DNA from: Nereocystis luetkeana | Lineage: Eukaryota > Sar > Phaeophyceae > Laminariales > Laminariaceae | Direction of reading: 5' to 3' | DNA length: 64,000 bases | Assembly (NCBI GenBank): GCA_031213475.1 | Contig: JARUPZ010000002.1 | Coordinates: 11,104,466-11,168,465 of the forward strand | Shown here: piece by piece, positions 1 to 56,800 of the stretch | Layout of the letters: every line of letters starts with the position of its first letter | Numbering within the stretch: the stretch's first letter is position 1 | Notes under the pieces: generated by a model | The model's input: only the letters and a program-made list of their open reading frames with translations | Databases searched by the model: none | What the model was told of the DNA's origin: nothing | Translations under genes and position numbers: made by a program

Positions 1-3000
1 GGTTGAGATTTTGTCGCACCCGTCCGGCAAGGCAAACGTGAGGGTCACATACAAAGTTTACGATGCTATTTTGTGTGTATTCAGTACGTTTTGAGAAACA
101 TTACGATCTCAGAGCTGTTGGTTCACCTGGTATCCATTTCAAATATGTAAGTACCGGGTGTCTGTATCACACACAGCTTTTGCTAAGATGAGTTTCGTGG
201 AAAGTCTCGATCTTGAAGCTTGAATTTTTCGTTTTGTTTTGTTTTTTCAAAATTCAGTGCGAGGGTGGGACTTGCGATAGAAAGCATTTTATGTATCTCG
301 GGAAGCTTTGAGAGGAGACTTTTCCGCGGGTTGGAGCCCTCCACTTGGATGTTACCTTCGGGCGGGGTGAAGGAGCGCGTTAAGCACCCCACGGAGGGAC
401 GCCTCGGGCGCCATATTTTTTGGAGCACTCACAGTATCCCAACAAGGCCCTTTTTTGCGTGTTCGTGCAAGAACTCGCGTCAGGGTGGGAGTCCAGGTGG
501 AAGCGACAAGAGCGAGGGCTAAGGGCACACACCATACCACGAAACGGAATTCGGTTTCTGTTGAAATATAGTGATGTACGACTTGAGTTATGTTCCGGTA
601 GCCTTTTTGATCCCTGTTTTTTTTTTTTCGTTCGCTCTTCTTCGTTGACTGTCTCCTCCCGTCGTTTTATGTCAACAGCCCGTCGCCCAGTCAGTGCCTA
701 TGTACGTGTCTGGGTCCGCTGACCTCCACGGGTCTAACAAGAACTACATCGCCGGTGGCGGAGACTTCGGTGTTAACCTCGGCAAGAGGTGCGTCCCCCT
801 TGTCTTTCGTTTGTTTGCCTTATATTATAGCCCTGTTGGGACTTAAGATGAGAAGATTGACGATGTAAAAAAATGACTATTACAGCAACGGCGACCGCAT
901 TGCCGGGGGGGTGAAAACGGATTATGTGTCCGATTTTTATATGGCAAGGAGGCGTACTGCACGGTCGCAATAATATGCTACCCGTACTGCGCGGTGCTCA
1001 CGCTGCTCGAGGACGGCTGATACCACCAAAATTATCAGTGTTTTGGTTGTTCTATATTTCAACACCCACAGAGTTTTTCATCCGTGTCCCAGAAAGTTGG
1101 TCATGTATGTTCGCCATCGCAGCAGTGCCATCCTGAGCGGTGCCATCCAAAGCGGGTATTTTGTTTTTTTGCGGTGTTCTCGGTCAAGCATTTTGTAGAC
1201 ATAGTAGCTGTGTGAGGAACCGTTGTTATAGTGCGTGAATGAAATCGGATCGCATATATGATGATATCTTGAGTCTCAGGTGAGTGTGCACGGTTTGGGA
1301 AAACGTCGGAAGCGCATGCACGTGCTTGATGCGGTGTGATGTCGGCAGTCGCATTCTGAAACGGCAGGCAGGACTCGGACTCGTGTGTTGATCATCCCGA
1401 AAGGCATTGCTGTTGTGGGTTAAAGTTCATGCTTGTTCGTCGGCCGCCTCTTCGCCTTTGCTGTATCGCGTCGCTCAATTGTTTGTTGCGCCTGGCTGCG
1501 TTTCCTTGCTTGTAGCTACACTGGCCGCAACTTCTACTACGGCATCCGCGAGCACGCCATGGGGTCCATCCTTAACGGGATCTCGTACTTCGGCCTCCAC
1601 CGTTGCTCCGGCTCCACCTTCCTGGTGTTCGCCGACTACATGCGCGCCCCCATGCGTGTGGCCGCCCTCTCTGAGCTGCCCGTCAACTACATCCTGACCC
1701 ACGACTCCATCGGTGTCGGAGAGGTGACACATATATAATGATTGTGTACGTAGGCGTGGATGGGCACCGTTTCTGTTGTTTTTGTTGCTTTGCCGAACCA
1801 AGCCCTTTAGACTGTGTTTATTTGCTTTTTTGTTTTCCGTCTGGTTCCCTCTTCGGTGTTTAAGCTGTGAGTACGCAGCTCGCTCGCACGTGTCGCCACT
1901 CACTCATGAAATTCTGTCTCATCGTCCGGAAAACGTTCCTTGTTTTGCCCCCGCGCTTGGTGTAAGCAATGTCTGCCTGGTCGGTGAAAACCCGACGTGC
2001 TCCGTCCCGGCATCGTAGATGTGCGAGGGAGGGTCCATGGTCCCACGACTACGGCCACGCATGGCATGGCATGCGTACCCCCCCCCCTCCCACCGCCTCC
2101 ATCTCGCACTTTTTTACACCCAATCACTCTTCCTTCGTTTCGCCCCGCATTTTCCCCAATTACACCTCCTGTTTATCGACGAGCAGGACGGACCCACCCA
2201 CCAGCCGGTCGAGACCGTGTCCGGCCTCCGCGTGTTCCCCAACATGGACGTGATGCGCCCCGCCGACCCCGAGGAGACGGCCGCCGCCTACGCCGCGTCG
2301 ATCGACCGCAAGGATGGCCCCACCGCGCTTATCCTCACGCGCCAAAACGTCCGCACCCTCAAGGAGATCCCGGTGCGTACTAATTACACCAAGCAGGCGG
2401 AGAGAGAGAGTGATGATGCGCGGTCTTTGTCGTGGGCACATGTTTTATGTGTACCCAAGCTTACGCGCATGAAAAAAATGGTGTCATACGTACTTGTAGG
2501 TGCTGCAACTGCTCCTCTGAGTGTCCATTATTTCGTAAGTTTTGCCCATCGACACTGGTGGTTGAACACGCCAACTTGGCTTTTAAGGAGAGATGGAAGA
2601 CGCGCAGATTTCGGTGCGCTGAGCGTGGTGCTGGGAGGTATCCGGAACGGGTGCGTTGGCGTTGCGAGTCATTGTGCGCGGGGGTGCAGAAGTTGTAAGG
2701 CTGGCTCGTTGTTCACACCCGAGTGGGGTTGGTGCACGATTCCTGATTTTTGTGTTTAATAACGGGGGAAGGGGGTTGGCCGTGCAGAATTAACTGCGAT
2801 GGAGCAATTGTTTGTCAGGTGGGCTACTTAGGGTCCGAAGGCGTTTCTTGACCGTGAAATGTGCTTATCGTCCACTCTCCCCACCCCCACCCCTGCGCAT
2901 GATGGAACAGGTCGCGACTCGCAGGCAGGGCACCCTCAAGGGAGCCTACGTAGCTAAGAAGGAGGAGGGCGCCCTTGAGCTCATCATCCTCGCCGCCGGA

Positions 3001-53800: not shown

Positions 53801-56800
53801 CGTCCCTCTCCCCGCGCCACGCTCAGCCGAACCGAAGCGCCTTGTACCAAAAAAAAGACGACCCCCGACACGTCTTGTCGCGATAAAAAAAGAGCGACAC
53901 CCACGACACAGCTTGACACAGCTTGCAGTAACCGTGCGAGCTGTAAGAAGTGCTGATGCGCTGACTGTATGATACCTCGTACCAGCGAATCACTACGATA
54001 TGATACTGCAAAAAATGATCCCATTCATTTTCTTCAAGTAGTGTGTGCCAAAAAAAACAGGGGCGCAGGTCGAAAAGGGTTTTACAACCGCTTTCCGCTG
54101 ACAGAGGCGTCACTAAACATAAAAAAAACTACAATGCAGAAGGGCATACACGACAAACGGAGGGACGAAGAACCCACGCCCCGCCGAGAAAAAGAAAACG
54201 TTCAAAAAACACTCGGGGGCTAAATTCCTTGAAAAAAAATATGCGGACACGTTTTCCTTTCTCTACGACAGCCCGACAACCCCCCCCACCACCACCACGA
54301 CCACCACGACCGCCCCCTCTCGTTCGATCTGAGGCATGCATGGCCGCCGAACAAAAGTCGCACATCTATCGTCTATCGCACCTAAAAGCCCTGCGCTGTG
54401 AAGAACAAAAAAACAGCGCGCTTATCGCGGCCTCTCCTTTGCACATTGAGCTATCAAAAACGTATACGCATAGGCAAAAACCCCATGTTGTCGCTGCTAG
54501 CCCTGCCGCTGTCGTGTGACGAGTTCGTGGGAGCGACACCCCCACCCCCGCCCCCCCGCGCCGAGGGTAGCTAGGATGAATTCACCCGGGAGGAAGAACG
54601 AAGGGATCCTTACGAGAGGAGCGCGGGGCGAATCCTAGTCCTAAGAAACAAAAAAGAAGAAAGAAAGAAAAAAAAAAGAGGCAAGATTCCCCGAGAGTAC
54701 ACAGGGAGCGGCAGTAGGGGGGGGGGGAAGCGCAAGGGCAACAGAAGGCGCGGAGGCGGCGGGACGGAACGGGGGGCAGGGGTCAACACGGGCCCACGCG
54801 CATAACGTCTCGCGCTTTTGTTGCAATAGACCCGCTGTCGACTGGTCCCGCTTGCAGCGATTGGCTGAAACAGACCGACTGACCAACCGACCGACCAACC
54901 ACCGACCAACCATATAACCGACCCACTTTTAGCGACCGACCGCACTGTGTGGGCCGTGTCACACACCCTAACCGCCCCCCCTCCCCCCGCCCCCCTATTT
55001 TATATAGGTTGGGTTGGCGTCGGTTGGCAACGACACTGTAAAACATGCCGCTCACTACGTGAGCTAGGCAACCAGGGTACCGTTTTTTTTTTTTTTTGAG
55101 CGGCCGCCCACAACTGGTTGTCGAGTTAGATCATATGTGCGAGGTAAAGAACCTTTACTCCGCACAAGGGAATTGATCGTATCACGTAGTGTTCAAGGTA
55201 AGGCACCCAAGAGGCAGTTACATAATACTCCCATTGCTGTCTCTGGAAATCCCTACGCCGGAAATTAAATTAACTCATTGAAGCTGTCATCCATATGCAA
55301 GTCCGCCTCACAAGCGGTTCTTAGTAGGATGCAGCTCACCCTTCATGTGACTCGCCCGACACCTCACGGCGCTTCGCGCTTGGTGCAAGCAATGTCTGCC
55401 TGGTCGGTGGAAACCCGACATGCTCCGTCCCGGCATTGTAGGATTGCGAGGGTCTATGGTCCTACGACTGCGGCCATGCATGAGATCGAGTACATATCTC
55501 CCATCGAGTACACCCCCCCCCTCCCCCCGCCCGCAGCAAAAGTAGACTGAGGAGTCTCCGCAAAATGCAGCAGGCGTTCCCGCTTGCGGTGGTCTCGTCC
55601 GGGGGGGTGGGGTTTTCTCTATTATGCGCTGCCAGTCCTTTCCGGGGTGCTGCCGACACCCGCTGAGGCTTCTCCGAGGCGTGTTGTTGCCAAAAACAGA
55701 CCATGCTGTTTGCTGCAGAGTTGGAAGGCGTGACGAAATGCCTCCATAAACAAGAACCCAGAGTGATATATACCTGGTATATATATATCATAGATGAGGT
55801 CCGTAGGGCCTTGTGATCTTTGCAATCGAGGCGACCGAACAGCACGTCGCTGGTGTTCCCCCGGCTTGCCGTCGGAAAGCCTGAAACAAAGTCGGCCGCG
55901 ACCTCCCTCCAGTGGTATTTTTAGACGATTCAAACTCCGTGACGTCACTCCCAATCTCCATTTTGAGCGTCCCCGTCCCGTACCTACCGCAGCCCCGAAA
56001 CTCAACGGCACCGCTCGTACCCGAGGAAAACCCTGACATCGACCCTATATACATGCCACCAAGCTCACGACGTCCAATAGTTGTGTGTAAATCACAAGAT
56101 CCACCGTGAGGGTACACCAGATGATCGACCTCCAGACTCGAAGCAACCGGAGCAAGCCAACCACCCATCGCGGTCGCCGGGAGGGCAAAAATGGCAAAAG
56201 GGCAAAAAGCGTGATGCTGCCGCCGCCACCGCCGCCGCCGCAGCAGCAGCAGCAGCAGCCACTACCACCGCCGCCGCCGCAGCAGCAGCAGCAGCAGCCG
56301 CCACCGCCACCGCCGTCGCTCCCTTCCATGAAGCCACGCTCTTGACATGGAACCAGAGCGACGAGCGACAGCGCGAAGCGACGAGCGGAGCGGACCGGAG
56401 CCCAACAACCTACCCCAACAACAACAACAAAAAACCTAACCGACGAGCCCCGATCGATCTGCTCAACCACAAGGAAGCGATCACGTTCTCGCCACTTTTG
56501 CCCGGACGTGTACTTAATTACATTTTTAGTGGTAAAGTGTACATTGTACCTGAATCTGACTTTAATTTCAAGTGTGTTTTATACACCACGGGAGTGCGGC
56601 CCTAAAAGGTTAGGCACCGTCCGGGTCCAATATGAAACAATAGAGTGGCATGATACGTACGACCGCAACAACGACGACGAGAAAAAAAAAACGTGCCATG
56701 AAAATACCAAGGGTCAACTCACTCACGGGTTGGACAGTTTTTCTGGCGGCGTTATCTCACCTTCTTTCGCAGGCCAGACGTGCCCGGTTTCATGCCCTCG

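What the first reader, a model, noticed from the sequence alone, without database searches (positions are those of the whole stretch)
1953..55530. R1: a 5'-truncated repeat family with C-run tails placed just before 3' splice sites
At least 12 copies share one 3' end and differ in 5' start, the hallmark of retroposition, yet end in C rather than A. In TK, FPG, the hypothetical gene and two fusion-gene introns (copies 1, 2, 3, 7, 10) the tail ends about 90-110 bases before the acceptor, so its C run extends the polypyrimidine tract. Nine of 12 copies are sense to the gene holding them. This could be an intron-targeting or intron-building element (introner-like), or selection against antisense copies that would put G runs before acceptors.
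Basis: partly seen in the sequence, partly recalled or inferred. Interest (0 to 1): 0.85.

Follow-up and report, generated by a model that had tools for sequence, protein, structure and literature searches.

The report
C-run-seeking short retroposon in brown alga
A very abundant small jumping element in what looks like a brown-algal genome inserts into runs of the DNA letter C, and because such runs lie beside exons its tail tends to point at the nearest exon; it sits inside introns rather than building them.

Summary
R1 is real. It is a short non-autonomous retroposon: full length about 530 nt, many 5'-truncated copies, about 2 per 10 kb; I extrapolate roughly 10^5 copies genome-wide. Its first ~40 nt and its 3' tail resemble the two ends of a ~6 kb LINE (APE-type endonuclease plus reverse transcriptase) seen in three loci, so R1 most likely moves with that LINE. 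The C run is not simply R1's tail: C runs also lie just 5' of the copies (25 of 45; G runs 0 of 45; two control repeats 2 of 55 and 2 of 34), and some flanks are matching interrupted repeats. R1 therefore inserts into C runs. Around 54 conserved exons the hits are 9 sense : 1 antisense upstream and 1 : 9 downstream, so the C end faces the exon on both sides. C/G runs are about twice as dense beside exons, and R1 hits per R1-free run are the same there as in unselected DNA (0.17 vs 0.19). Splice-site proximity and 'sense bias' thus follow from target choice. R1 lacks introner anatomy. No empty site was found and there are no RNA data; per exon, the downstream run polarity is only a trend.

The parts
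1952..2104 (+). R1 copy, 5'-truncated, in a transketolase intron
   Evidence: nhmmer E=3e-39; Transket_pyr exon matches before and after it
20171..20508 (+). R1 copy, 5'-truncated, in the Fpg gene
   Evidence: E=1e-112; acceptor at 20567
29261..29314 (+). short R1 3' end
   Evidence: E=1.5e-08
30179..30706 (+). near full-length R1
   Evidence: E=9e-174; C run upstream
36125..36204 (-). R1b (LINE 3' tail) copy
   Evidence: E=6.6e-26
39928..40202 (-). R1 copy, sense in phosphoglucomutase intron
   Evidence: E=5.8e-92; exon matches 39734-39615 and 39028-38870
40921..41002 (-). R1b copy directly after the next R1 copy (serial insertion)
   Evidence: E=1.2e-16
40995..41143 (-). R1 copy, 5'-truncated
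   Evidence: E=3.5e-42
41961..42067 (-). R1 copy, 5'-truncated
   Evidence: E=2.7e-24
43201..43351 (-). R1 copy with a C run on both sides
   Evidence: E=7.7e-47; flanks
45193..45235 (+). weak R1 3' end
   Evidence: E=1.1e-4
45244..45284 (+). weak R1 3' end, tandem with the previous
   Evidence: E=5.9e-4
45637..45803 (-). R1 copy inside a long C run (18 or more C on each side)
   Evidence: E=1.5e-57; flanks
52342..52413 (+). R1 3' end with three copies of an 18-nt tail unit
   Evidence: E=7.3e-12; tandem repeat 52367-52412
55001..55532 (+). near full-length R1 flanked by the same interrupted C run on both sides
   Evidence: E=5.8e-174; flank match

Best explanation
R1 is a non-autonomous, SINE-like retroposon mobilised by a C-run-seeking LINE. 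The LINE endonuclease nicks the G strand of a C/G run (inferred). The freed 3' G run pairs with the C-ended 3' end of R1 or LINE RNA and primes reverse transcription (inferred). Second-strand cleavage in the same run leaves C-run sequence on both sides (C flanks shown; target duplications statistically but modestly supported). New copies are often 5'-truncated (shown) and carry C runs at both ends, which draw further head-to-tail insertions (tandem same-strand copies shown). C runs are enriched beside exons, C strand upstream (shown) and G strand downstream (trend), so R1 lies near splice sites with its C end facing the exon. Because a C run remains between element and exon, such insertions may be tolerated (inferred).
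For: C>=5 within 30 nt 5' of 25 of 45 copies, G>=5 in 0 of 45, versus 2 of 55 and 2 of 34 for two control repeats; in every truncation class (7/8, 6/13, 6/11, 6/12 within 40 nt; background 5%). Flank pairs match better than swapped pairs, p=0.0026, 39 copies. Adjacent copies within 60 nt: 14 same strand, 1 opposite. LINE with endonuclease and RT bearing an R1-like head and tail; RT matches LINE-1 ORF2 chains, E=1.5e-20. Exon flanks: upstream 9 sense: 1 antisense, downstream 1: 9, Fisher p=0.0011; by locus 7:1 and 1:5, p=0.026. R1 per R1-free run >=6: unselected 0.19, window 0.16, exon flanks 0.17.
Against: No clean empty site among 88 joined-flank queries. In the flank test the medians are equal (7.5 and 7.5), none of 39 exceeds the 99% quantile of swapped pairs, and the top pair owes its match to an older R1 tail. 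About 20 of 45 copies have no C>=5 within 30 nt upstream. The downstream run is longer (>=8 C in 19 of 30 versus 9 of 30 upstream), so the RNA may add C. Tail likeness of R1 to the LINE is moderate (22.5 versus shuffle maximum 19). Downstream G-run polarity per exon is not significant for runs >=6 (16:8, p=0.15; R1-masked 13:8, p=0.38). Only 11 of 54 exons carry hits, 9 kinase and 2 kinesin. Movement of R1 by this LINE is inferred.
Confidence: 0.8

Rival explanations
1. The C run is purely an RNA-derived or slippage-extended tail. R1 inserts without C preference, and selection later removes copies that would put G runs before acceptors.
For: The 3' C run is longer than the 5' one. Some RTE LINEs end in simple repeats (PMC3747384 table and PMC2887409, passages seen).
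Against: C runs also lie 5' of truncated copies, far above control repeats. Antisense copies are frequent downstream of exons.
Confidence: 0.08
2. R1 is an introner: its insertion creates new introns.
For: Copies lie in introns near acceptors.
Against: Upstream sense copies end 31-213 nt before exon matches and occupy only part of the intron in the cases seen; orientation reverses downstream of exons; density in unselected DNA is 2.1 per 10 kb. Exon starts are match starts with median slack 80 nt, so single cases are not excluded.
Confidence: 0.02
3. Reverse causation: the C/G runs beside exons are mostly remnants of old R1/LINE insertions, kept only in tolerated orientations.
For: 50 of 166 C runs >=8 touch R1-family copies (38 at tails, 12 at 5' flanks), and serial insertion makes new runs.
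Against: 116 of 166 runs have no detectable R1-family copy and none of those is preceded by GAGTAY. Upstream polarity persists with R1 masked, 21:5 exons, p=0.0025. Fully decayed copies cannot be excluded.
Confidence: 0.1

Closest known systems
RTEX-N1_Ec32 and RTE-X LINEs of Ectocarpus (PMC12477816; abstract, sections 5 and 7 and passages read)
   Same: Brown-algal non-autonomous element of about 600 bp, very abundant, sharing its 3' end with an autonomous LINE; unclear SINE status.
   Different: [quoted passage not shown] I could not compare sequences, so identity of the families is open.
SINEs built from both ends of an RTE LINE, such as Bov-A2 and RTESINE1 (PMC3747384, passages and table seen)
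   Same: Head from the LINE 5' end, tail from the LINE 3' end.
   Different: No C-run targeting is stated in the passages seen.
LINEs that enter simple repeats, such as DONG in (TAA)n and TRAS in telomeric repeats (cited in PMC2887409, passage seen)
   Same: Simple-sequence target, copies joined to the repeat.
   Different: Here the target is a C/G homopolymer found beside exons across the genome, not rDNA spacer or telomere.
Introners (PMC9860276, listing and abstract start only)
   Same: Repeated elements found in introns.
   Different: R1 copies are only part of the intron and their ends are not splice sites in the cases seen.

Membership tests
SINE (classical) | RNA polymerase III promoter from tRNA, 5S or 7SL | tested here: inconclusive
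   No tRNA gene and no Rfam family at gathering score in the window; on one copy gave only two weak, irrelevant matches. Box A/B promoters were not scanned.
SINE/LINE pair | 3' end shared with a LINE of the same genome | tested here: met
   R1 tail versus LINE tail score 22.5, shuffle maximum 19, mean 10; the R1 profile hits LINE tails. Moderate, not near-identical.
SINE of the '5' end of LINE' type | Head derived from the LINE 5' end | tested here: met
   Head alignment score 32, shuffle maximum 15; also seen in L030.
LINE (partner element) | Endonuclease and reverse transcriptase, truncated copies, target duplication | tested here: met
   PF14529, PF03372 and RVT_1 in L021; RT matches LINE-1 ORF2 structures; 5'-truncated in L029. 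PF14529 and PF03372 score below Pfam cut-offs in L021, above. Repeated C run plus CATTATCACA at both ends of L021 visible.
RTE-X clade | Position in an RT phylogeny | not tested
   No reference clade sequences were at hand.
Simple-repeat-targeting retrotransposon | Target repeat on both sides of the insert | tested here: met
   C>=5 upstream in 25 of 45, controls 2 of 55 and 2 of 34.
Simple-repeat-targeting retrotransposon | Uninterrupted repeat at the empty site | tested here: inconclusive
   No clean empty site in 88 flank queries; the duplicate contig checked is identical.
Introner | Element ends coincide with splice sites so that the insert is the intron | tested here: not met
   20 hits beside 54 exons; upstream sense ends 31-213 nt from exon matches, downstream hits mostly antisense; boundary slack median 80 nt.

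The most novel reading that the evidence does not exclude
In this alga exons are bracketed by C runs upstream and G runs downstream that act in exon or intron recognition (possibly by pairing across the intron). A LINE/SINE pair has evolved to home on these brackets, duplicating and renewing them at each insertion, so that a transposon both exploits and maintains a splicing signal genome-wide.
Probability: 0.15. Interest if true: 0.85.

Novelty: new variant of a known kind. Interest (0 to 1): 0.6.

Why it matters
It gives one testable rule, insertion into C runs, that explains a pattern otherwise read as intron targeting or selection on orientation, including the reversal of orientation on the two sides of exons. 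If the C/G runs are splicing signals, this is a retroelement with a near-harmless niche inside genes, and a natural tool for reading the little-known splice signals of brown algae.

Tried and rejected
Introner reading: rejected on anatomy and on density in unselected DNA. Intron targeting beyond C runs: no excess per run. HDV-like ribozyme at the shared 5' end: considered because some LINE 5' ends carry one (recalled); no such Rfam match. Allelic empty site on contig C567: 3601 of 3601 compared bases are identical to the window. Empty sites by joined flanks: 13 spanning matches from 88 queries, which I read as tandem R1/LINE tails or weak similarity, none a clean empty site. RVT_1 search to find the partner: 150 scored of 4777 candidates, nearly all at the same score; the endonuclease family PF14529 worked. 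ABC_tran exons: unusable, 17 of 20 matches have one identical score on small contigs. Exon finding from codon usage: too noisy. A C-run-targeting LINE or SINE was not seen in the listings, nor brown-algal C/G-run exon brackets in the listings; these search one open-access library and only part of each listing was shown.

Choices that affect counts. Exons: 34 of 139 listed kinase matches, picked by hand for short open frame, internal start and no stop inside, tandem duplicates thinned. Of 40 kinesin exons picked from 132 matches, 20 were obtained. I had noticed that an R1 hit lay beside one kinase exon (L035) before fetching it; without it the table is 7:1 and 1:4 loci, p=0.032. Thresholds differ: E<0.01, E<0.001 (20 hits; 19 hits in the same loci, larger database). 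One search dropped 15 of 45 hits without a clear GAGTAC-like end; one search used 39 of 56 merged copies. 'Unselected' stretches were set by me at round coordinates, not drawn at random.
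Full report
WHERE. The window lies in a 465 Mb genome. EsV-1-7 repeats are abundant (150 scored of 1710 candidates; 0 of 14 control genomes). PMC12477816 (section 5 read) says this domain has proliferated in brown algae and is otherwise mostly known from giant viruses, so I take the host to be a brown alga.

THE OBSERVATION. R1 copies share one 3' end and begin at many positions of a ~530 nt model. In 264 kb (20 ten-kb stretches at round coordinates on nine large contigs, plus the window) there are 56 merged R1/R1b copies at E<1e-4, covering about 4.2% of bases. 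Extrapolation from the 20 stretches gives about 98,000 copies (bootstrap 58,000-142,000). The window is not special: 2.3 versus 2.1 hits per 10 kb.

C RUNS ON BOTH SIDES. Printed flanks often show a C run or pyrimidine tract just before the 5' end of a copy, whatever the truncation point. C>=5 lies within 30 nt upstream in 25 of 45 copies, G>=5 in 0 of 45; two unrelated repeats in the same DNA give 2 of 55 and 2 of 34. By truncation class with a 40-nt window: 7/8, 6/13, 6/11 and 6/12, background 5%. In several copies the two flanks carry the same interrupted run, for example window 55001, and L016, where the repeat extends into non-C bases after the run. Over 39 copies flanks match better than swapped flanks, mean 9.92 versus 8.77, p=0.0026; the signal is modest, because the medians are both 7.5, none exceeds the 99% quantile of swapped pairs, and the top pair owes its match to an older R1 tail. 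The downstream run tends to be longer (>=8 C in 19 of 30 versus 9 of 30), so the RNA may add some C.

SERIAL INSERTION. Neighbouring copies within 60 nt lie on the same strand in 14 of 15 pairs, as expected if a C tail is the next target.

THE PARTNER. A search for the LINE endonuclease PF14529 gave five genome matches from 13 candidates. One lies in stretch L021, which holds a decayed ~6 kb element with endonuclease and reverse transcriptase matches. It starts with an R1-like head after a C run and ends in the R1b tail and a C run; the sequence C run plus CATTATCACA stands at both ends (printed). Two of the other four matches were fetched (L029, L030) and are the same family, 93.9% and 94.2% identical over the longest aligned pieces. 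In L030 the LINE begins right after an R1 tail; L029 has nested 3' ends. R1 against the LINE: head score 32, shuffle maximum 15; tail score 22.5, shuffle maximum 19. The RT matches LINE-1 ORF2 chains at E=1.5e-20 and R2 more weakly. Its clade is untested.

EXONS. Conserved kinase (34) and kinesin (20) exons were taken with up to 450 nt on each side. R1/R1b hits at E<0.001: upstream 9 sense and 1 antisense, downstream 1 sense and 9 antisense, p=0.0011; by locus 7:1 and 1:5, p=0.026. 11 of 54 exons carry hits, 9 kinase and 2 kinesin. Exon ends are domain-match ends; slack to the first in-frame stop has median 80 nt upstream and 56 nt downstream. Upstream sense R1 ends lie at a median of 93 nt from the exon (9 hits), R1-free C runs >=6 at 87.5 nt (38 runs).

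RUN POLARITY. Runs >=6: upstream 56 C and 8 G, downstream 22 C and 51 G; with R1 masked 38 and 8, 21 and 37. Per exon: upstream C>G in 25 against 5, p=0.0003, masked 21:5, p=0.0025; downstream G>C in 16 against 8, p=0.15, masked 13:8, p=0.38; for runs >=8 downstream 13:4, p=0.049, masked 9:4, p=0.27. The upstream bias is firm; the downstream one is a trend.

WHAT EXPLAINS SPLICE-SITE PROXIMITY. R1 hits per R1-free run >=6 number 0.19 in unselected DNA, 0.16 in the window and 0.17 in exon flanks; for runs >=8 they are 0.51, 0.48 and 0.41. Runs >=6 are 30.9 per 10 kb beside exons against 14.2. The R1 enrichment beside exons (4.0 versus 2.1 per 10 kb) is thus accounted for by its target. [quoted passage not shown] the same passages argue against a G/C stem-loop in the one human intron tested.

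MECHANISM. Target-primed reverse transcription with a G-run primer pairing to a C-ended RNA is inferred from the anatomy and the LINE enzymes. Shown: two-sided C flanks, truncation, LINE-like head and tail, tandem same-strand insertion, exon-facing orientation. Inferred: strand nicked, pairing, mobilisation by this LINE, tolerance by the host.

KNOWN WORK. A ~600 bp non-autonomous relative of RTE-X LINEs is described in Ectocarpus (PMC12477816, sections 5 and 7 read). SINEs with a LINE 5' head and LINE 3' tail are tabulated in PMC3747384 (passages seen). LINEs entering simple repeats are cited in PMC2887409 (passage seen). I did not see a C-run target with exon-facing orientation in the listings searched.

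Noticed in passing
window 400-4000; contig C567:21728-25328: A small contig repeats this part of the window base for base over the 3601 bases compared, so it is probably an assembly duplicate.
   Followed up: partly
54 exon loci L031-L084: C runs are enriched upstream of exons, and G runs tend to follow them, even when R1 is masked; this may be a splicing signal in its own right.
   Followed up: partly
window 38870-42599, minus strand: Phosphoglucomutase exons (PGM_PMM_III, PGM1_C) carry several sense R1 copies between them.
   Followed up: partly
window 60379-60585 (+): Copia-type Pol_BBD domain match, with a weak gag-like match at about 59563-59760.
   Followed up: no
window 3336-3430, 47212-47379: A short repeat with internal inverted symmetry, 34 hits in 264 kb, without C-run flanks.
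   Followed up: partly
L028:7202-7308: Another short repeat family, 55 hits in 264 kb, without C-run flanks; used as a control.
   Followed up: partly
window 9895-10450: A 556-nt (GTA)n array.
   Followed up: no
contigs C53 to C129: 17 of 20 ABC_tran matches have an identical score on small contigs, perhaps an organelle gene assembled many times.
   Followed up: no
whole genome: EsV-1-7 repeats: 150 scored of 1710 candidates.
   Followed up: no
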